Shown here in pieces: positions 56,268-64,000 of a DNA stretch of 64,000 nt. The DNA lies in contig NZ_JACVBX010000009.1 of assembly GCF_014852585.1 (NCBI RefSeq), positions 1 to 64,000 of the forward strand, read 5' to 3'. Made by a program: the position numbers and the translations under genes. The notes under the pieces are model-generated. The model did not search any database, was not told where the DNA came from, and saw only the letters and a list, made by a program, of their open reading frames with translations. Positions within the stretch are counted from its first letter, which is position 1; each line of letters begins with the position of its first letter. The DNA comes from Pseudomonas sp. PDM18. GTDB lineage: Bacteria; Pseudomonadota; Gammaproteobacteria; Pseudomonadales; Pseudomonadaceae.

Positions 56268-57422
56268 ATGCGCTCCCTGCTCACCCGCATCTGGCTCTTC
56301 TTCGGCAAATGGCTCGGCCGTCTGCTGCTCGCCGTCGCCGCCATCGGCCTGCTCGGCTGGGGCCTTGGCAGCCTCTACTACGCTTGGAAATTCTCCGGCC
56401 CCGTTTCCGCCCAGGAGGAAATCCCGCCGGGCGAAGCCCAGCTCACCCAGGCCATCATCGAAGACGCCGTGCGCATCGTCGAACAGCACCGCGACAACAC
56501 CCGCGTGCTGCGTGATGCCCACGCCAAGGCCCACGGCTGCGTGAAGGCCGAAGTCACAGTCGCTGGCGATATAGCCCCCGGCCTGCGCCAGGGCGTGTTC
56601 GCCGAACCCGGCCACAAGTGGCAGGCCATGGTCCGTTTCTCCAACGGCAACGCCTACCCGCAGTTCGACAGCGCCCGCGACGCCCGCGGCATGGCCATCA
56701 AACTGCTCGACGTCCCCGGCGCCAAGCTGATGCCCGGCAAGGGCCACGACACCGAACAGGACTTCGTCATGTTCAACCACCCGGTATTCTTCGTCCGCGA
56801 CGTCGCCGAGTACCGGCAGAACTTCGCCGCGCAAGCCAGCGGCCAGAAGGTCGCCGCGTTCTTCCCCAGCTGGAAACCCAGCACCTGGGAAATCCGCCAC
56901 CTGATCATCGCCCTGCAGACCCTCGCCCCCGCCCCCGACAGCCCCTTGCAGGCCGACTACAACGGCATCGCCCCGTACAAGCTGGGTGAGGAAAACAACA
57001 TCAAATACCGCGTCATCCCGCTGAGCGAAGGCTGCCCGGCCTACCAGCTACCCAAGCTCAACGAGAAACTGCCCAACTTCCTGCGCACCGCCATGTACCA
57101 GCAACTCTCGGTCGACCGCGTCCCCGCCTGCTTCGCCCTGCAAGTGCAGAAACAGGACCCGAGCCACTACATGCCCATCGAAGACGTCAGCGTCGAATGG
57201 AGCGAAAAGGACTCCCCCTTCCAGACCGTCGCCACCGTCAGCATCCCGCCCCAGGACTTCGACAGCCGCGAGCAGAACCTCGCCTGCGACAACCTCTCCT
57301 ACAACCCCTGGCACGCCCTGCCGGAGCACCGGCCGATTGGCGGGATCAATCGGTTGCGGAAGGCGGTTTATGAGGCGGTGAGTGTTTATCGGCATCAGAG
57401 GAATGGGGTGGGTGGGGAGTAA
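56268..57422 (+). CDS. Membrane-anchored catalase-fold haem protein
   Basis: The 384-residue protein has one N-terminal membrane segment (about 17-40) followed by a catalase-like core of the small SrpA-related type. The candidate distal histidine region is RDAHAKAHG (H85, H89), and VRFSNGNAYPQFDSARDARG follows as in catalases. The C-terminal LSYNPWHALPEHRPIGGINR is typical of this subfamily. Members may be peroxidases or fatty-acid hydroperoxide enzymes rather than true catalases. The pairing with a periplasmic di-haem cytochrome suggests a joint oxidative function. Confidence 0.72.
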   Translation: MRSLLTRIWLFFGKWLGRLLLAVAAIGLLGWGLGSLYYAWKFSGPVSAQEEIPPGEAQLTQAIIEDAVRIVEQHRDNTRVLRDAHAKAHGCVKAEVTVAGDIAPGLRQGVFAEPGHKWQAMVRFSNGNAYPQFDSARDARGMAIKLLDVPGAKLMPGKGHDTEQDFVMFNHPVFFVRDVAEYRQNFAAQASGQKVAAFFPSWKPSTWEIRHLIIALQTLAPAPDSPLQADYNGIAPYKLGEENNIKYRVIPLSEGCPAYQLPKLNEKLPNFLRTAMYQQLSVDRVPACFALQVQKQDPSHYMPIEDVSVEWSEKDSPFQTVATVSIPPQDFDSREQNLACDNLSYNPWHALPEHRPIGGINRLRKAVYEAVSVYRHQRNGVGGE

Positions 57423-57527
57423 GGCTGCACGAAGATATTCCGATGCAGCAAGGAGGCAGGGAGCAACATAAAGAACGAAACAACAAGCCCGCTAACGTGC
57501 GGGCTTGTTGAATCAAAACCACTTAGC

Positions 57528-57815
57528 TCAGCGAGTCTTGCAAACGTCTAATTCTGCCTGCGTCTTCAGCTCAGTCTCGATACCTAGTCGATACTTACAG
57601 TAATCACGTACCGTAGTACGTTCTAGTGGACTCAACTGATCAAGAGGCTTATCGTCCGCATCGCTGGCAAAGAGATTTACAAACTCAACCTGCAACGAAG
57701 GATATTTCTTTATAAAGAAGACATGCTTATTATCCTCGGCCCAGCGCGTATTGTAGAAAGCCACATATAAATGGGCCACGCACAGTATCAGAAGGAGAGC
57801 GACAAGCCTTTTCAT
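57528..57815 (-). CDS. Small membrane or exported protein of unknown function
   Basis: The 95-residue product begins MKRLVALLLILCVAHLYVAF, a signal anchor, followed by a polar region with two cysteines (DYCKYR, DVCKTR). I do not recognise it. It lies 71 bases downstream of the immunity gene in the same direction. Its base composition is lower in GC than the surroundings, like the other genes of the island. It may be a second immunity or accessory protein, but this is a guess. Confidence 0.5.
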   Translation of the reverse strand: MKRLVALLLILCVAHLYVAFYNTRWAEDNKHVFFIKKYPSLQVEFVNLFASDADDKPLDQLSPLERTTVRDYCKYRLGIETELKTQAELDVCKTR

Positions 57816-57886
57816 GACGTCGGCGGCGGCAGCAAAATCATATCCTTGCGAATACTCTCACGACACGCTCCTATTTAATTTCAACA

Positions 57887-58144
57887 TCAGCTTTTCTTGA
57901 ATCCAGGCAGTCCATTGGCGGCGCGCCATTCCTTCACTACTCGCGTAACGTCAACTGGCGATCCGCTAGAACCATTTTCAGGGTAATAGATCAAGTCTGT
58001 ACCGTCCGGATGCCCAGTTAACTCACAGAACTGATCCAGCAGAACATCAAGCACGTCATCAGTAGGAGATTTGTTTTCGACTAAAATTTTCTCTATAAAA
58101 CTGACAAACTCAGCTTCTGTAAAGTCAGTGATTTTGTTTTTCAT
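57887..58144 (-). CDS. Im9/pyocin-type nuclease immunity protein
   Basis: The 85-residue protein matches the colicin E / S-pyocin immunity family: ITDFTEAEFVSFIEKI at the start, HPDGTDLIYYPENGSSGSP as the nuclease-binding loop, and KEWRAANGLPGFKKS at the end. It should bind and block the HNH nuclease domain encoded just upstream. Its ATG overlaps the toxin stop by one base (TAATG). The gene is AT-rich compared with the core genes, a sign of transfer. Confidence 0.93.
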   Translation of the reverse strand: MKNKITDFTEAEFVSFIEKILVENKSPTDDVLDVLLDQFCELTGHPDGTDLIYYPENGSSGSPVDVTRVVKEWRAANGLPGFKKS

Positions 58145-59727
58145 TACCCATTCCTATGAATATCAATATGAAATTTAGGAGTGACAACGGTGAGATTATC
58201 AACATCATAAACCCTGCCACCTTGGGCCACTTCATCTATATGGTGCAATTCAAAAGAGCTTCGCTTTCCCGCTCTATCTTTGTATCGAACCTTAGGGGCT
58301 TTACCTTCTCGCATACGATCAACATTATTTTCTACGAACTGCCCTGTGAGCGAAGAGCTACGGGCTACGGCCTTCCATAGAGCACGCCTGAAACTATCGA
58401 AAGAACTATAGCTTTTCCCCCTAAGTTGATCCGCCACCTCTTGGGGAATCGGAGAGCCAAGCCCTTCACCAGCTCCGACCAACCAGATACCAGAAACATC
58501 CTTACCAACACCCGTCACCGTACCCGGATCATGCCGGGCGTTCACCACGATATAGAGCGGTTTAATCCCAGAGCCAGCCGGGAACACTAGGATGAAATCC
58601 CGATATTCCGGCGGATAGATTGGATTGACGATGAGATTATCCGTCTGCTCAGTCGGCGGATAAATAGTGATTTGAGGAGCCTGCGGAGCAGCATCCAGAG
58701 CAGGAATGCCAAGCGTGTCAGCGGGGTTGGCGGCAGGTGTCCAGATCAGCTCAACGCCACCACCAAAATCAGCCACCATCTGGCTGCCAATTTGGGCGAA
58801 CTGAACGACCGGGATTATTTCCCAATCGCGACGCAACTCCGTGTTATAGCCATAGCCCTTCAGCGTGCCATCCGGCTGTGTTTCCACACGAATCCGCACA
58901 CGAGTTCGGGCCTGCTTCATCGAGCGCAGTTGTTCTTCTGTATAGAGCGCACTATCACCCAAGCTCGACGGCCAGAGCATCGCCACTACACCCAGCAATG
59001 CTCCGCCGACCACACCGCCCGAGAGTATGCCACCGCCAACGACTCGGCCGCCTGCACCAGTAGCGACACGGGCACCAGTGCCCAGCGCTCCTCCGGCAGA
59101 AGCTACATCGCAAAGCCCGCCACAGGATACTCCTGGATCAGCGGCAACTCCGCGCAAAGTGAAACTGCCAATTCCGGAGGGAACATTCCCGCTGATTTTC
59201 TTGAGCGGAAGCGATCCGCTGTCATCGACCTCCCGACCACCCAACAACACCAGATTACCAAAGTCCCTGGCGGAGTCGATGGGAAAGGCCCCCGAAGACC
59301 GGCTGTAATCGATCACCGAGTCAGGCAGCTTGCAGCACTTAGCAAACACGGAAGCAGTCTTTGCCTGGGACGGCTCCGACGTGAAGGACCTAGCAACAGG
59401 GGTAGGGGCTGGCGCAGGAGCGATGAAAGTCCGGGCCGGAATGGAGGCAAGCGTAGGAACGGCCGGCGAATCCGTATATTGCGTGGTTGAACCGTAAACC
59501 ACGTGGTCCGGGCATTTGCATAGCACTCTGTCACCCGTGGCTACATAGGGCTGCGATTCGGACCATTCATAGGCTGTTCCGTTGATAGGAAACGTGCCCT
59601 TGCACTTGCCGCACCGTGCAAGGTCGCCTCTCTGGGCAATAGGTCTATTACCTTCGAACCACGTGGCCGTGGCCGATATCACTTCACCGTAAGTGGTTTT
59701 GTCTCCAAGACAGGCAAGCGCTCTCAA
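58144..59727 (-). CDS. PAAR-domain effector with pyocin-type HNH nuclease
   Basis: The 527-residue protein has an N-terminal PAAR-like domain (residues 1-90, containing GDKTTYGEVISATATW and VATGDRVLCKCPDHVVYGS). A glycine-rich hydrophobic stretch lies near 215-255, an S-type pyocin middle domain near 270-430, and a C-terminal HNH DNase motif at the end: FELHHIDEVAQGG and NLTVVTPKFHIDIH. PAAR proteins cap the type VI secretion spike, so this is probably a T6SS-delivered DNase toxin. No other T6SS gene is in the window. The cognate immunity gene follows directly. Confidence 0.88.
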   Translation of the reverse strand: MRALACLGDKTTYGEVISATATWFEGNRPIAQRGDLARCGKCKGTFPINGTAYEWSESQPYVATGDRVLCKCPDHVVYGSTTQYTDSPAVPTLASIPARTFIAPAPAPTPVARSFTSEPSQAKTASVFAKCCKLPDSVIDYSRSSGAFPIDSARDFGNLVLLGGREVDDSGSLPLKKISGNVPSGIGSFTLRGVAADPGVSCGGLCDVASAGGALGTGARVATGAGGRVVGGGILSGGVVGGALLGVVAMLWPSSLGDSALYTEEQLRSMKQARTRVRIRVETQPDGTLKGYGYNTELRRDWEIIPVVQFAQIGSQMVADFGGGVELIWTPAANPADTLGIPALDAAPQAPQITIYPPTEQTDNLIVNPIYPPEYRDFILVFPAGSGIKPLYIVVNARHDPGTVTGVGKDVSGIWLVGAGEGLGSPIPQEVADQLRGKSYSSFDSFRRALWKAVARSSSLTGQFVENNVDRMREGKAPKVRYKDRAGKRSSFELHHIDEVAQGGRVYDVDNLTVVTPKFHIDIHRNG

Positions 59728-59900
59728 TCAGAGTCCCTCCTCAATGGCGCCGATCAAACAATCGGGGACTTCGGACCGTAGCGATCGCCCATCAACGCCG
59801 TATGTAGGACCGGTCTCAAACTCCCCGCGGAGAACTCTGCCGCTGACTTCAAAAATGCATGCCCTTGACTACTGAGATCCAAGCTCCCTACCCTCCACCC

Positions 59901-59970
59901 GCCCCGTGAAACCGACGGGGCCGGGATTAGCAGCCCGAAACTCCCAAAGACTCGGTAATGCCCCGGCATT
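59901..59970 (+). ncRNA. Candidate C4/P4-CI-type antisense RNA
   Basis: A compact structured segment. Hairpin GCCCCGT/ACGGGGC is at 59901-59921. Hairpin CGGG/CCCG at 59922-59937 shows ATTAGCAG in its loop. Next come unpaired TCCCAAAG (59942-59949) and hairpin AATGC/GCATT (59957-59970). ATTAGCA and TCCCAAAG are complementary to TGCTAA (60061-60066) and CTTTGGGA (60045-60052) downstream. This two-segment complementarity, ahead of an antirepressor-like gene, is the hallmark of phage C4 RNA. No promoter was identified. Confidence 0.5.
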
Positions 59971-60022
59971 TCCCGACGATTGCGTTCGTCTGGAGATCGC
60001 CTCTTATGGCGGCCGCATAGGG

Positions 60023-60134
60023 AGACCTTCGGGTCTGCCGATGTCTTTGGGAATCGGTACTGCTAACCCCGTGCGGCTCGCCTCCATTACCGATTAGCAG
60101 CGGCCGGTGGCGAATTCTTGGACAATCCCAAAGG
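60023..60134 (+). promoter_or_regulatory. Bro-N gene leader with sequestered ribosome-binding site
   Basis: A UUCG-capped hairpin AGACC/GGTCT (60023-60036) is followed by CTTTGGGA (60045-60052). That segment can pair with TCCCAAAG at 60126-60133, directly covering the AAAGG ribosome-binding site of the next gene. Inside this, TGCTAA (60061-60066) pairs with TTAGCA (60094-60099). The same segments are the targets of the upstream candidate antisense RNA. Confidence 0.5.
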
Positions 60135-60143
60135 TTTACCACC

Positions 60144-60650
60144 ATGGACGATCTACCCTTCCCCACCCCACTCCTCTTCCTCCGCAATCGCCGCACCTTG
60201 CGTGCCCTGCTGATCGACGATCAGGTCTGGTTCATCCTCTCTGACTTCTGCCGTGTGACGGGCTACCCGCACGAAGACCGCATGGCCATGCGCCTGGCGG
60301 ATGACCAGATTCGCCAGGAGCGGCTGCTGACCGAGGACGGGCTGGAGCTCGACTACGTGCTGATCAGCGAATCCGCCGTGTACCAGGCGCTGGTGCTGTT
60401 CAACGTGCCGGACTTCGGTTCGCTGCGGCGCTGGATCAGCGGCACGGTGGTGCCGCAGGTGCGCAGCCAGTTCAACTCCGCCGGCCCGCGCCATGTGCAG
60501 CTGCAATTCGAACGGCAATGCCTGCGGGTGCTGGATTGGCAGGATGACCTGTGGGTGAGCTTCGGCGACCTGCCGCGCGTGCTCGGCGGGCGTTCGCCGA
60601 TTGCCGGGCGCACCGGCTGGCGCGGTTGGGCGAAAAGGTTGCGGACGTAG
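60144..60650 (+). CDS. Bro-N-domain antirepressor-like protein, probably truncated
   Basis: The 168-residue protein has one Bro-N domain (LRALLIDDQVWFILSDFCRV; MAMRLADDQ; ESAVYQALVLFNVPDF; RRWISGTVVPQVR). A second, incomplete copy of its first half begins near residue 129 (LRVLDWQDDLWVSFGDLPRV). Bro-N proteins are typical phage antirepressors or DNA-binding regulators. The stop codon is formed by the first bases of a GTAGGGCGC repeat, so the C terminus may have been cut by repeat insertion. No other phage gene is seen nearby. Confidence 0.8.
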   Translation: MDDLPFPTPLLFLRNRRTLRALLIDDQVWFILSDFCRVTGYPHEDRMAMRLADDQIRQERLLTEDGLELDYVLISESAVYQALVLFNVPDFGSLRRWISGTVVPQVRSQFNSAGPRHVQLQFERQCLRVLDWQDDLWVSFGDLPRVLGGRSPIAGRTGWRGWAKRLRT

Positions 60651-60829
60651 GGCGCATAACGCGGCACGCGTTATCCGCCGTGACGCTGTGGCGGCGGATA
60701 ACCGCTTCGCGGTTATTCGCCCTGCGGGCTCACAGAAAATACCGTTCGTAGGATGGCGTGGAGCGCGGCGATACCCATCAATGCCTGGGCGCCGACAGCA
60801 TGGATATCGCTACGCTTCACCCATCCTGC
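60647..60829. repeat. Two repeats downstream of the Bro-N gene
   Basis: A GTAGGGCGCATAACGC...GTTATTCGCCCTGC element lies at 60647-60725; its first bases supply the Bro-N stop codon. A GTAGGATGGCGTGGAGC...CACCCATCCTGC element follows at 60747-60829. The latter has mismatches between its arms. Confidence 0.82.
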
Positions 60830-60852
60830 TGGTGCGTCACGTCGCGGTGGCG

Positions 60853-61410
60853 TCAGAGCTGCCCGCCCAGCTTCAGCAGGGTCATTATGAGCCCGCCGAT
60901 GGTCATGAAGGAGGCTAGCAGCGTGCCGAGGATCAGCGGGACGACGCCGCCCGGCGAGACGTAGGGCGTCACTTCCAGCAGGAAGCCGGAGCGGATGTGA
61001 TACGGGGTCAGGCAGGTGATCCGGTAATCGCCGGGGTCGCTGCAGTGGAATTCGCCGAGGGGATTGCTGGCGTTGCCGCCCATGTCGCTGCGGCGCACGG
61101 TGAAGACGTTGAAGCGGCTGCACGCCTCGTAGGGCACGGGGTTGCCGGTGGCGCAGGCAGTGACGGCGAAATCTGCGTCGAAGTGCGCGGTACCGGTGAC
61201 GACGGTAAAGGGCGGGAAGACGATATTGACCACGTAGCGCCCCGGTTGCGGCAGCGTCACCACCTCCGCGTGGGCGGGGTCGGCCCAGCGGTAGCAGAGG
61301 TCGGGTGCGATCACCCGGCGCAGCCCGCCGATGCAGCGGATCAGCAGGTAGCCGCCGAGCAGCATCACCAGCGGTGCGCTCCACAGCAGAGTCGAGGGTT
61401 CAAGGCTCAT
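60853..61410 (-). CDS. Hypothetical membrane protein
   Basis: The 185-residue product has a membrane segment near the start (LLWSAPLVMLLGGYLLIRCI) and another near the end (VVPLILGTLLASFMTIGGLI). Between them lies an extracytoplasmic domain with three cysteines. I do not recognise a family. The ATG at 61410 was preferred over an upstream start at 61461 because it lies just before the first membrane segment; the choice is not certain. Confidence 0.55.
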   Translation of the reverse strand: MSLEPSTLLWSAPLVMLLGGYLLIRCIGGLRRVIAPDLCYRWADPAHAEVVTLPQPGRYVVNIVFPPFTVVTGTAHFDADFAVTACATGNPVPYEACSRFNVFTVRRSDMGGNASNPLGEFHCSDPGDYRITCLTPYHIRSGFLLEVTPYVSPGGVVPLILGTLLASFMTIGGLIMTLLKLGGQL

Positions 61411-61526
61411 GGCGGGGTGTCCTGCCTGGGTTGAGGGCGGCGGGCATCTCAGCAGTGCCATCTTTCAATATCGCGCATGGGCGCTGCGCGGCGGTGGTGC
61501 AAGGTGATGCGCCGTGGAAGCGAGAC

Positions 61527-61561
61527 GGCGGATAACCGCTACGCGGTTATTCGCCCTACAG
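61527..61561. repeat. Partial GCGGATAACCGC repeat
   Basis: One arm of the GTAGGGCG family (GCGGATAACCGCTACGCGGTTATTCGCCCTAC), with an internal hairpin, lies downstream of the thioesterase gene. Confidence 0.75.
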
Positions 61562-61585
61562 GGGGATTTCCGACCGGCAACGGTG

Positions 61586-62038
61586 CTAGGCGTCGGCCAG
61601 CGGGCGCGGCTTGTTGACGTACTTGAAGGTGCCCGAAGCGGTCGCAACGACGACGCCCTGGCTGTTGCGCAGCTCGCCCTCGCAGAAGGCGATGGAGCGG
61701 GTGTGGTGCTGGACCTTGCCGTGGGCTTCCAGCACTTCGCCGACTTCGCCGCCGGGGCGCAGGAAGCTGGTCTTCATCTCCACGGTCACCACGCCGCGAT
61801 AGGCTTCGTCGGCATCGCTGGCGCTCAGGGCCATGGCGACGTCGAGCAGGGTCATGATCAGGCCACCATGCGCGTTGGCCCAGCCATTCACATGCTGCGG
61901 TTCGACGCGTATGACCAGGCGGCCCGGCCCGTTTCCGTCTTCCGCCGGAGCGTGGCGGAACTGCAGGAAATCGAGCATGGGAATGGCGATGCCACGGTGG
62001 GCGGTGTAGAGCTCGAGCTGGTCGATATCGAGGGACAT
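61586..62038 (-). CDS. PaaI-type hotdog thioesterase
   Basis: The 150-residue hotdog-fold protein has the family motif WANAHGGLIMTLLDVAMA near residue 53 and VTVEMKTSFLRPG. It likely hydrolyses an acyl-CoA; the substrate cannot be read from the sequence. It stands alone between hypothetical genes. Confidence 0.85.
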   Translation of the reverse strand: MSLDIDQLELYTAHRGIAIPMLDFLQFRHAPAEDGNGPGRLVIRVEPQHVNGWANAHGGLIMTLLDVAMALSASDADEAYRGVVTVEMKTSFLRPGGEVGEVLEAHGKVQHHTRSIAFCEGELRNSQGVVVATASGTFKYVNKPRPLADA

Positions 62039-62183
62039 GGGGCTTCCTGGTGCACGAGTGAGGCCAGGCGATGTTCCCCGCTCCGGCCGGCGGATCGCAA
62101 GCCCGAAGTAGCTTCATGCATGACAGGAATGCTCGCCAATTGCAGCACTCAGGCGAACAATCGGCACCGCTCGCCCCGGGTGG

Positions 62184-62576
62184 TCAACGTGACCGGCGGG
62201 TGCTGTTCTTCTTTTCGCTCTGGCGCTCGACGGCCTGGACGAAGAGTTCCTCGACCAGCAGGGACTGGATGGGCGCGCGGGTTTCCAACGACAGACTCAT
62301 CGATTCCAACTTCTGGTTAACGCCGAGGCGGGCGATGCCGCACAGCAGGATGCGCTGGGCGCCGAAGATGCTGCCCTTGTCGACCAGAACTTCACGAGGT
62401 TTTTCGCCGTCCAGGTAGCTGACCTTGAGGGCGATGGCGGTGTCGTCGCGCACAGCCAGGTTGAGCCAGGTGGCGACGTTGAACTCGACCACCCAGCCCA
62501 GACCGGTCTTCTTGGCCACGGCTTCACGGACCAGATGAGCGGGAACCGGACCCAGGGGGGTGCTGTGGTTTTCCAT
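62184..62576 (-). CDS. Conserved-looking protein of unknown function
   Basis: The 130-residue protein starts at MENHSTPLGP. It has a mixed alpha/beta pattern (WVVEFNVATWLNLAVRDDTA; EVLVDKGSIFGAQRILLCGI) and a basic C-terminal tail (KKNSTRRSR). There are no membrane segments and I do not recognise a family. The ATG at 62576 was chosen over one at 62615. Confidence 0.5.
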   Translation of the reverse strand: MENHSTPLGPVPAHLVREAVAKKTGLGWVVEFNVATWLNLAVRDDTAIALKVSYLDGEKPREVLVDKGSIFGAQRILLCGIARLGVNQKLESMSLSLETRAPIQSLLVEELFVQAVERQSEKKNSTRRSR

Positions 62577-62892
62577 GGGGCTACTTCTGACTGCAGGGGG
62601 TAGAGCGAAATGCACTATCGGAAGACTCGATTTTATGTGAAGCAGTTCAAGTTTTCAGTCGGATTTTTGTAAGACAACCGCTATTGAGTATGCGTGACGT
62701 TACAGAAGCGAGCCGCTCTGGAATGCGACTCTGCTGCCTGAATGAGCTGAAGGAAGTGCCGCGGTAGCTACGGAATACCGAATACGGTCCGACGAAATGA
62801 ATGAGAGGGCTCGTCGTCACGCAAGGCCGGTCCGGCGCCATGCCGAATCGACCTTGCCGTGTCTCCTTGGCTGGCGCAGGCGCCAGTGAGGC
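62577..62892. other. Intergenic stretch without a gene
   Basis: About 316 bases, moderately AT-rich near 62640-62780. I see no convincing coding frame, repeat or RNA here. Frames crossing it are short or run antisense over the 51-residue gene. Confidence 0.5.
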
Positions 62893-62908
62893 CGGGCCCT
62901 GGGGCCCG
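62893..62908. terminator. Hairpin after the 51-residue gene
   Basis: CGGGCC-CTGG-GGCCCG, a 6-bp GC-rich stem, begins 5 bases beyond the stop codon of the small minus-strand gene. There is no T-tract, so its strength is unclear. Confidence 0.4.
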
Positions 62909-62913
62909 CTTGC

Positions 62914-63069
62914 TCAGGCCACGCCAGCAAAAATGCGGGGCCTGTGTTCGCCCGAGCGGTTCTTGCGCACTTCCCGGCGCTCTCTGAAGTCCAGTTCTTC
63001 CGGGGCGTCCATGCGTTCCCGCAGGTCTTCGATGACCTGCGGGGTCAACAGCTTGCGATGTCGAGTCAT
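62914..63069 (-). CDS. 51-residue charged protein
   Basis: The small frame encodes a strongly charged protein starting MTRHRKLLTPQVIEDL and rich in Arg and Glu (RERREVRKNRSGEHRPR), ending IFAGVA. A strong GGAGG ribosome-binding site lies 5 bases upstream of the ATG. A hairpin follows the stop. Both support a real gene. I do not recognise it; it may be a small nucleic-acid- or ribosome-associated protein, but this is only suggested by its charge. Confidence 0.6.
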   Translation of the reverse strand: MTRHRKLLTPQVIEDLRERMDAPEELDFRERREVRKNRSGEHRPRIFAGVA

Positions 63070-63215
63070 ACGCACCTCCTGCGTGCTGATGCCTCATTAA
63101 TTGGACTAGCACGCGGGTACGAAGATTCAACATCCAGGCGGGACGGATTGACCAAACGGTCAGGCGGGCGAGGTGTAGGAACACCACGCGAAAGTGACAT
63201 GGCTGACGAACAACC

Positions 63216-63357
63216 TGTAGGAGCGAGGGGATGCCATCGTTACTGCTCGCGAACGAGTTCCCCTGCAGCGCCAACGTTGAGCTGTTCGCGAGCAAGCTCG
63301 CTCCTACAAAGAGCCTGTACCACGGCGTACAACCACGAACGCTTGTACGTCTTACGA
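63216..63357. repeat. Repeats between the small gene and the carboxypeptidase
   Basis: A CTGTAGGAGCGAGGGGATGCC...GCGAGCAAGCTCGCTCCTAC element lies at 63216-63307. A diverged GGCGTACAACC...CTTGTACGTCTTACG arm follows at 63322-63357. Confidence 0.72.
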
Positions 63358-63358
63358 A

Positions 63359-64000
63359 TCAACGCAATTCGTCGATCAGGTCCGCCACCGTCACCAGCAC
63401 CGCTTCCGCCAGCACCTTCGAACGCGCCCCGCTCCACCCGGTGCGCGCATTGGGCGACAGGTTGTGGTCCTTGAACGGCATCTCCAGAGTCAGCGACAGG
63501 CAGTCGTAGGTACGGCCGACGTGGTTGCAGGCCAGGGTCAGGTTGGCCTGGCCGGGAGCGTCCTTCGGATAACCGTGCACGCTCTGGAATTCGCCGTTGG
63601 CTTCCAGACGCTCGCGGAACAGGCTTTCCAGGCGCTCCAGCCGCGGCGTGAACTCCGGGTTGCCTTCGCAGCCGGCGGCGAACACGAAGGGGATTTCCTC
63701 GTCGCCGTGTACGTCGAGGAATAGGTCCACGCCGTATTTGGCCATCTGCTGCTGGACGAACAGCACTTCGGGGCTTTTCTCGGCGCTGGGCGCGGCCCAG
63801 GCGCGGTTGAGGTCCTTGCCGGCGGCGTTGGTGCGCAGATGGCCGTGGAAGGCGCCATCCGGATTCATGTTCGGCACCAGGTAGAAGTCGGCGCGTTCCA
63901 GGAGACGCTGGACTTCGACGTCGCTGGATTGCAGGCGCTCGATCAACCCTTCCATGAACCACTCGGCCATGTGCTCGCCGGGGTGCTGCTGGGCGATCAG
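63359..64000 (-). CDS. M14-family zinc carboxypeptidase, 5' end missing
   Basis: The gene runs off the right edge; 213 C-terminal codons plus the stop are visible. The zinc-ligand motif QQHPGEHMAEW lies at the window edge, followed by LVPNMNPDGAFHGHLR and NLNRAW-like DLNRAW. The third zinc histidine lies in FLDVHGDE and the catalytic glutamate in LTLEMPFKDH. These mark the bacterial cytosolic carboxypeptidase group of M14 (related to eukaryotic CCP deglutamylases). Confidence 0.9.
   Translation of the reverse strand: MIAQQHPGEHMAEWFMEGLIERLQSSDVEVQRLLERADFYLVPNMNPDGAFHGHLRTNAAGKDLNRAWAAPSAEKSPEVLFVQQQMAKYGVDLFLDVHGDEEIPFVFAAGCEGNPEFTPRLERLESLFRERLEANGEFQSVHGYPKDAPGQANLTLACNHVGRTYDCLSLTLEMPFKDHNLSPNARTGWSGARSKVLAEAVLVTVADLIDELR

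What the first reader, a model, noticed from the sequence alone, without database searches (positions are those of the whole stretch)
59901..60146. C4/P4-CI-like antisense riboregulator in front of a Bro-N antirepressor gene
Seen: an upstream segment carries ATTAGCA (in a hairpin loop, 59926-59932) and TCCCAAAG (59942-59949). Both are complementary to TGCTAA (60061-60066) and CTTTGGGA (60045-60052). The same two blocks recur as TTAGCA (60094-60099) and TCCCAAAG (60126-60133), the latter covering the ribosome-binding site. So the target segment can either close the RBS hairpin or pair with the upstream RNA. Known: phage P1/P7 C4 and P4 CI RNAs control antirepressor or immunity functions in this two-segment manner. 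Inference: this is a member attached to a lone Bro-N gene outside a recognisable prophage.
Basis: partly seen in the sequence, partly recalled or inferred. Interest (0 to 1): 0.72.

Follow-up and report, generated by a model that had tools for sequence, protein, structure and literature searches.

The report
C4 antisense RNA before Bro-N gene
A bacterial chromosome carries a small phage-type regulator gene that is probably kept silent by a phage-type antisense RNA built into its own leader; related species carry up to twenty such RNAs, and this one sits beside a slot where relatives hold different phage-defence or toxin genes.

Summary
Window 60002-60088 is a C4 antisense RNA (RF01695, 65 bits, cut-off 45). 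A second target, a2/b2, covers the ribosome-binding site of a 168-aa Bro-N antirepressor-like gene. All four pairings together: 0 of 5000 shuffles. New: 25 of 25 genus genomes carry C4, 1-20 matches each, against 5 of 142 others of the class. In 62 parsed of 63 units read (of 215), the b' seed fits its own targets far more often than those of other units in the same genome. The window unit is syntenic in 12 other genomes; Bro-N is under purifying selection. No phage record matches its DNA. It borders a variable slot that holds defence-type or PAAR effector genes in 11 of 17 genomes. In 7 of 13 close orthologues another conserved leader without recognisable C4 stands instead. Processing, repression and role are inferred.

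The parts
59865..59894 (+). promoter-like TTGACT-18-TACCCT just before the leader (inferred)
   Evidence: Read by eye; similar TTGAC..TA boxes seen by eye before 7 of the 9 other A-type leaders (one of the other two starts at a contig end). The consensus scan found 0 promoters here, so weak.
59888..59941 (+). c4-a1b1 element (upstream target of C4)
   Evidence: RF03163, 36.5 bits, E 1.3e-7, below gathering score 46.7.
59926..59932 (+). a1 target block in a hairpin loop (the 7-nt match to a' is TTAGCAG, 59927-59933)
59942..59951 (+). b1 target block TCCCAAAGAC
   Evidence: 10-nt complement of b'; duplex -17.2 kcal/mol with own b', at best -9.7 between that b' and the b1 regions of the nine other A-type leaders
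60002..60088 (+). C4 antisense RNA
   Evidence: RF01695, 65 bits, gathering 45, model 1-87 of 87; family fold: 12 of 22 predicted pairs with a change on both sides among 25 C4s
60043..60052 (+). b' seed GTCTTTGGGA in the P3 loop
60060..60066 (+). a' seed CTGCTAA, between P3 and the 3' strand of P1
60094..60100 (+). a2 target block TTAGCAG
60126..60133 (+). b2 target block TCCCAAAG, overlapping the Shine-Dalgarno-like AAAGG (60130-60134)
   Evidence: duplex -12.8 kcal/mol with own b'
60144..60650 (+). Bro-N antirepressor-like protein, 168 aa
   Evidence: PF02498 29.2 bits, cut-off 25.6; PHROGs anti-repressor families, best phrog_130 E 2e-10; no NCBIfam family; dN/dS 0.11-0.55 in 55 pairs of 11 orthologues
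56268..57422 (+). conserved catalase-fold gene, left border of the variable slot
   Evidence: PF00199; recognisable by its first residues in the orthologous loci
57890..59727 (-). slot content here: immunity gene (57890-58144) and PAAR-like / S-type pyocin / DNase effector gene (58144-59727), divergent from the leader
   Evidence: PF01320, PF21431, PF06958 over cut-off; PF05488 (PAAR) 24.8 bits, below its cut-off 27
61586..62038 (-). 4HBT thioesterase gene, syntenic marker on the right
   Evidence: PF03061; within about 8 kb of the Bro-N orthologue in 12 other genomes

Best explanation
The leader of this Bro-N gene is a self-addressed C4 riboregulator. One transcript starts near 59895 and carries, in order, target a1/b1, the C4 RNA, target a2/b2 over the ribosome-binding site, and the gene. 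C4 is cut out (in P1/P7 by RNase P; inferred here) and pairs through b' (P3 loop) and a' (beside P3) with a2/b2, which blocks translation of Bro-N; pairing with a1/b1 of the same or another transcript tunes the supply of free C4 or ends transcription early. The gene is thus off unless C4 is lost, titrated or outrun. The module is a chromosomal, vertically kept relative of a phage immunity switch, not part of a recognisable prophage. Shown: C4 fold and family membership, the four complementary blocks, matched changes in relatives, synteny, purifying selection on Bro-N. Inferred: transcription, processing, repression, and what Bro-N does.
For: C4 hit over cut-off, c4-a1b1 hit below cut-off. Four pairings never reached together in 5000 shuffles. 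In relatives the seeds change and the targets follow: own b' matches of 7 nt or more in 46 of 62 units upstream and 38 of 62 downstream, against 11 and 12 of 482 swaps within a genome; duplex energies in orthologues. C4 fold with double changes. Bro-N constrained: mean dN/dS 0.18, 0.29 and 0.25 in three groups of pairs. Same place in 12 other genomes. No phage record similar to the unit's DNA; a pattern scan of viral contigs gave two with a relative of the protein family. Published: C4 of P1/P7 is cut by RNase P and its b' loop partly occludes the ribosome-binding site (PMC5320573, passages).
Against: No RNA data. In the full-length transcript the best fold pairs a1/b1 with a'/b' in cis and puts the ribosome-binding site in its own hairpin, so an excised C4 is not strictly needed for silence. 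Seven of 12 other close orthologues use another leader without a recognisable C4 and still keep Bro-N. In one search own targets were the best in 5 of 10 rows for b1 and 8 of 10 for b2. Two of the six close C4-type copies (G020, G022) have an interrupted Bro-N frame (28 and 61 residues to the first stop), and the G009 copy is truncated. No promoter or terminator by consensus scan.
Confidence: 0.75

Rival explanations
1. P4 CI-type control: C4 acts mainly by pairing with the nascent leader (a1/b1), causing early transcription termination rather than blocking the ribosome.
For: In the sub-class with a' TTTCCAC/TTTCTAC, 12 of 12 parsed units keep a b1 match of 7 nt or more but only 1 of 12 has a b2 match, and for that one (L058) no Bro-N was found. 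In 8 of the other 11 the ribosome-binding site lies in a constant GCTTCTTG...CAAGGAGC hairpin. So b1:b' pairing is kept without a b2 target.
Against: The window unit has a perfect 8-nt b2 over the Shine-Dalgarno, and 37 of the 50 other parsed units (the window among them) have b2 of 7 nt or more. No terminator found by scan. The P4 mechanism is recalled, not tested here.
Confidence: 0.3
2. IsrK-like activation: the upstream a1/b1 RNA, not C4, is the trans-acting regulator and opens the blocked leader of the antirepressor gene.
For: The a1/b1 region also scores weakly as isrK (26.1 bits, gathering 50); Gifsy-1 IsrK activates translation of antirepressor AnrP about 140-fold through a leader ORF (PMC4825925, passages).
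Against: isrK score far below cut-off; the C4 model hit is strong and independent; no search for a coupled leader ORF in the window unit was made beyond the ORF list.
Confidence: 0.1
3. Cis-only RNA switch: C4 is never excised, and the leader toggles between a1/b1:a'/b' and a'/b':a2/b2 pairing.
For: Minimum-energy fold of the whole leader pairs a1/b1 with a'/b'.
Against: P1/P7 C4 is an excised RNA of about 77 nt, and Acinetobacter C4-like RNAs show more reads over the C4 part than upstream of it (PMC5320573, passages).
Confidence: 0.2
4. Decaying prophage remnant without function.
For: Interrupted or truncated Bro-N in G020, G022 and G009, and a bare a1b1-like trace in G016.
Against: Constraint on Bro-N, matched change of seeds and targets, a conserved place in 12 other genomes.
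Confidence: 0.1

Closest known systems
C4 antisense RNA of phages P1/P7 (Rfam RF01695)
   Same: Covariance-model membership, a'/b' seeds, targets over a ribosome-binding site, downstream antirepressor-type gene.
   Different: On a chromosome, with no phage gene among the nine neighbours scanned; the first gene is Bro-N itself, whereas in P1 the c4 operon runs c4, icd, ant1/2 (PMC8198154, passages).
c4-a1b1 (Rfam RF03163; Weinberg et al. 2010, PMC2864571, table line seen in passages)
   Same: The upstream a1/b1 hairpin element, full-length model match.
   Different: Below the gathering score here (36.5 against 46.7).
Acinetobacter baumannii Group 1 C4-like sRNAs (PMC5320573, passages)
   Same: Many C4-like RNAs in one genome, reported there as highly expressed and apparently processed.
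   Different: In the passages seen the targets are a matter of conjecture; here most of the units read carry matching targets and a gene directly behind.
Phage P4 CI RNA (recalled)
   Same: One RNA with target copies on both sides in the same leader.
   Different: Another RNA; P4 represses by transcription termination (recalled).
Gifsy-1 IsrK / AnrP (PMC4825925, passages)
   Same: Structured RNA leader before an antirepressor gene; weak isrK-like score here.
   Different: IsrK activates, through a leader ORF; C4 was not seen in the passages.

Membership tests
C4 antisense RNA (RF01695) | Covariance-model score over the curated cut-off | tested here: met
   65 bits against 45
C4 antisense RNA (RF01695) | a' and b' complementary to blocks at a downstream ribosome-binding site | tested here: met
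   a2 7 nt, b2 8 nt over AAAGG; all four blocks together in 0 of 5000 shuffles
C4 antisense RNA (RF01695) | Three-stem fold with compensatory changes | tested here: met
   12 of 22 predicted pairs show double changes among 25 C4s; P1 and P2 were found, P3 was not drawn by the consensus; it is present in the single fold, z -3.65
C4 antisense RNA (RF01695) | Excised RNA of about 77 nt, RNase P at the 5' end | not testable with these tools
   no RNA data
C4 antisense RNA (RF01695) | Represses an antirepressor or linked gene | not testable with these tools
   Bro-N gene directly behind; repression not shown
c4-a1b1 (RF03163) | Covariance-model score over the curated cut-off | tested here: inconclusive
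   36.5 bits against 46.7: below the cut-off, but E 1.3e-7 in a 601-base search and a full-length model match; not reported in the gathering-score scan of the window
isrK (RF01394) | Covariance-model score over the curated cut-off | tested here: not met
   26.1 bits against 50
Part of a prophage | Phage genes in the neighbourhood | tested here: not met
   Of nine proteins scanned in 56268-64000 only Bro-N is phage-type; four had no Pfam family at all and the rest are host-type or bacteriocin-type; no phage record similar to the unit's DNA. The rest of the window was not scanned for phage genes.
Bro-N domain family (PF02498) | Pfam score over cut-off | tested here: met
   29.2 bits against 25.6; 31 of 32 aligned members of the unit family match at E 1e-3

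The most novel reading that the evidence does not exclude
In this genus the phage C4 switch has become a bacterial family of mutually non-interfering, self-silenced Bro-N genes that works like a set of type I toxin-antitoxin or abortive-infection locks. Each gene is released only when its own C4 is lost or titrated, for example by an incoming phage or satellite with the same seeds, and the window unit guards, or is carried along with, an exchangeable defence/effector slot.
Probability: 0.2. Interest if true: 0.85.

Novelty: new member of a known kind. Interest (0 to 1): 0.52.

Why it matters
C4 is known as a phage immunity RNA, and the roles of multi-copy C4-like RNAs in Acinetobacter were left as conjecture (PMC5320573, passages). 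Here most of the units read carry their targets with them, with a seed that is largely private within a genome and changes together with its targets, even between orthologous units. That gives a natural set of largely insulated RNA switches, makes the question of what chromosomal C4 RNAs do directly testable, and places one of them beside a defence/effector hotspot. A sub-class that keeps only the upstream target could separate two modes of action (ribosome block and action on the leader).

Tried and rejected
Prophage reading of the window unit: no similar DNA in 50,697 phage records; tblastn of the protein in phages gave 166 records, all under 60% identity, 1 of them covering at least 80% of the query; 3 plasmid records, all under 60% identity; no viral contig by pattern scan for the protein alone, 2 for the family profile, and no C4 over cut-off in those two loci. 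The viral-contig scans are pattern-based and can miss relatives.

Defence cargo as a rule for every Bro-N unit: not borne out. For 36 other units taken as Bro-N units, PADLOC was run on 68 upstream and 72 downstream neighbour proteins; no family matched more than 2 of 68 or 2 of 72 (the 25 most frequent of 127 and of 26 families were listed). A type I restriction set and a JetC/JetD pair are among the hits. So the hotspot is shown for the window locus only.

Leader B as a coding leader or a hidden C4. One frame is stop-free over 46 codons or more in 7 of 8 copies and stops 8 nt before the Bro-N start in 5 of those 7, but among the four copies of equal length the differences show no third-position excess, so coding is not supported and not excluded. 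No C4 at E<=1 in seven of the eight copies nor at the gathering score in the eighth, G009. The long consensus hairpin has 2 of 56 predicted pairs with double changes. Left unexplained.

Fold search with the Bro-N model (mean pLDDT 85.8): no PDB match at E<=0.001; best a granulovirus Orf22 N-terminal domain, E 0.018. No functional clue.

Consensus promoter and terminator scan: nothing.

Parsing and sampling limits: the 63 units were chosen by me from the listed matches (the list was cut), from 12 of 25 genomes, so high-scoring copies are favoured. Seeds were parsed in 62 of 63; some loops were mis-cut (for example L059, L062, L058, L040) and stay in the counts. Two tandem extra C4 copies (L038_1057964, L043_4229562) have no matching targets and count as misses. 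My automatic gene choice found no gene in 6 units and mis-framed others.

Full report
WHAT WAS CHECKED. The pairings are longer than reported: b1 59942-59951 with b' 60043-60052 over 10 nt, b' with b2 over 8 nt, and a' (CTGCTAA, 60060-60066) with a1 and with a2 over 7 nt each. With dinucleotide-shuffled flanks all four never occurred together in 5000 trials.

WHAT IT IS. Rfam places the C4 antisense RNA at 60002-60088 (65 bits, cut-off 45, whole model) and the family c4-a1b1, described as 'a1, b1 targets of C4 antisense RNA', at 59888-59941 (36.5 bits, under its cut-off of 46.7). That gene is a 168-aa Bro-N protein that matches phage anti-repressor families of PHROGs and no NCBIfam family.

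THE FAMILY AROUND IT. The genome holds 4 C4 copies. In the genus, 25 of 25 genomes searched hold C4, with 1 to 20 matches each, 215 in sum; among 142 other genomes of the class 5 have any, 1 to 3 each (scored with stricter filters, so weak ones may be lost). I read 63 of the 215 units, from 12 genomes. Of the 57 units for which a first gene was picked, 38 fall in one cluster with the window's Bro-N; 32 of these are of full length and 31 of the 32 match the Pfam Bro-N domain. The rest are short ORFs of several kinds or mis-framed picks. For the short-ORF class I scanned six neighbour proteins from five loci: three match phage primase, regulator or integrase families and three match nothing, so at least some of these look like prophage or satellite units.

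PRIVATE ADDRESSES. In 62 parsed units the b' loop matches its own leader by 7 nt or more in 46 cases upstream and 38 downstream; swapped between units of one genome, 11 and 12 of 482; shuffled loops 534 and 366 of 12,400. a' is drawn from a smaller set (swaps within a genome reach 7 nt in 65 and 45 of 482), so privacy rests on b'. Orthologous units can carry different seeds. Among 10 A-type leaders (the window locus, five close and four more distant relatives), the window b' binds its own b1 at -17.2 and b2 at -12.8 kcal/mol, and those of the other nine at best at -9.7 and -9.5. Over all ten rows own targets were the best in 5 of 10 (b1) and 8 of 10 (b2); several rows carry seeds that differ by one letter, and some own b1 matches need G-U pairs. 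The C4 fold of 25 units shows double changes in 12 of 22 predicted pairs; P3, whose loop is the variable seed, was not drawn in that consensus.

A SUB-CLASS WITHOUT THE SECOND TARGET. Of 12 parsed units with a' TTTCCAC or TTTCTAC, 12 keep b1 and 1 keeps b2; in 8 of the other 11 the ribosome-binding site lies in a constant GCTTCTTG...CAAGGAGC hairpin. The upstream pairing therefore seems to have a value of its own.

THE WINDOW LOCUS IN RELATIVES. Bro-N orthologues of 77-93% identity lie within about 8 kb of the same 4HBT gene in 12 other genomes; two of them, G020 and G022, have an interrupted frame. Of these 12, five have a C4 leader (A: G007, G023, G013, G020, G022) and seven have a different conserved leader (B: G010, G006, G017, G008, G019, G024, G021) that keeps an a1/b1 element (24.6 to 37.7 bits, all below cut-off) but shows no C4. 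An eighth B copy, in G009, stands before a truncated Bro-N. A and B do not form two clades on the Bro-N tree (5 changes, no better than shuffled labels; 2 forced by well-supported branches), which suggests exchange or repeated change of the leader; the tree is weakly resolved, 6 of 12 inner branches open. Bro-N is constrained under both (mean dN/dS 0.18 for 6 A pairs, 0.29 for 21 B pairs, 0.25 for 28 pairs between; G020 and G022 were left out).

A VARIABLE SLOT BESIDE IT. Between a conserved catalase-fold gene and the leader lies a stretch whose content varies and which is often AT-rich (GC 0.39-0.57 in 16 relatives). With the window I looked at 17 slots; L274 (contig end), L288 and L290 (no Bro-N locus in the stretch) were dropped, and so was the distant G005 orthologue (L044). 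Family searches give: defence-type families in 8 (SIR2_2 in G010, without a PADLOC hit at 1e-20; AAA_21/HEC-01A with a sub-cut-off DUF4276 in G017, and in G009 by near-identical sequence; Mrr-type in G019; GmrSD/NsnA with HEPN in G020; AAA_15/NsnB in G022 and G001; GmrSD/HEC-06 in G011), PAAR effectors in 3 (the window, PAAR below cut-off but pyocin and DNase domains above; G021; G016 by sequence similarity to G021, not scanned with Pfam), HNH in G006, GGDEF with TPR in G023, a STAND-like hit below cut-off in G003, no family in the two proteins scanned of G013, one small ORF without family in G008, and a near-empty 354-bp slot in G024. Three pairs of genomes share related content (G017/G009, G021/G016, and the HNH gene of G006/G019). 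In G016 and G009 the slot is filled although Bro-N is missing or truncated. For 36 other Bro-N units such cargo is not the rule.

HOW IT MOST LIKELY WORKS. By analogy with P1/P7 (C4 cut by RNase P; b' partly occludes the ribosome-binding site, a' gives specificity; PMC5320573, passages) C4 is excised from the leader and silences Bro-N. Confidence 0.75 for a C4 repressor of Bro-N. The rivals are a P4-type termination mode, a cis-only switch (the full leader's best fold pairs a1/b1 with a'/b'), IsrK-like activation and a relic.

LITERATURE. Full-text searches of the open library: 'C4 antisense RNA' alone 17 papers, 15 listed; with antirepressor 1; with Pseudomonas 6; 'C4 RNA' with Pseudomonas, antisense and phage P1 1; 'c4-a1b1' 1; three of Bro-N, antirepressor, Pseudomonas, antisense RNA 32, 15 listed; BRO family with defense systems, hotspot and Pseudomonas 0. 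I read only titles and abstract starts of the listings and passages of four papers (PMC5320573, PMC2864571, PMC8198154, PMC4825925). In these I saw no account of a chromosomal self-addressed C4 family in Pseudomonas; subscription papers and supplements were not searchable.

VERDICT. A sound, correctly placed observation of a known RNA family, with a chromosomal deployment that I did not find described in what could be searched.

Noticed in passing
L122, L126, L129, L123, L124, L127, L128, L266 (just before the Bro-N orthologue): Leader B: about 175 nt, seven copies 83-98% identical to the L122 one, keeps an a1/b1 element and a 12-nt near-complement of a1 but no recognisable C4; a frame of 46 codons or more is open in 7 of 8 copies, without codon-type substitution bias. 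An unexplained alternative leader of the same gene.
   Followed up: partly
window 57423-59887 and the matching stretches of L275-L287, L289, L291, L292: Variable slot with defence-type or PAAR effector genes in 11 of 17 genomes, between a catalase-fold gene and the C4-Bro-N leader.
   Followed up: partly
window 58144-59727 (-): PAAR-like N-terminus (below cut-off) joined to S-type pyocin and colicin/pyocin DNase domains, with an immunity gene at 57890-58144: a secreted-effector/bacteriocin hybrid, by its domains aimed at bacteria.
   Followed up: no
L034, L040, L041, L045-L047, L064, L076, L080, L088, L093: C4 units that keep only the upstream a1/b1 target; in 8 of these 11 the ribosome-binding site lies in a constant hairpin.
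   Followed up: partly
L038 (1057964) and L043 (4229562): Tandem second C4 copies about 240-300 bp upstream of the other one, without matching targets: apparent duplicates or relics.
   Followed up: no
L048, L052, L053: C4 units with a short ORF instead of Bro-N lie beside phage-type primase, regulator or integrase genes: probably satellites or prophages.
   Followed up: partly
L064 b' loop and the b1 block of the G019 leader B (L127): A 9-nt complement between a C4 seed and the leader of another unit in the same genome (read by eye); possible cross-talk or chance.
   Followed up: no
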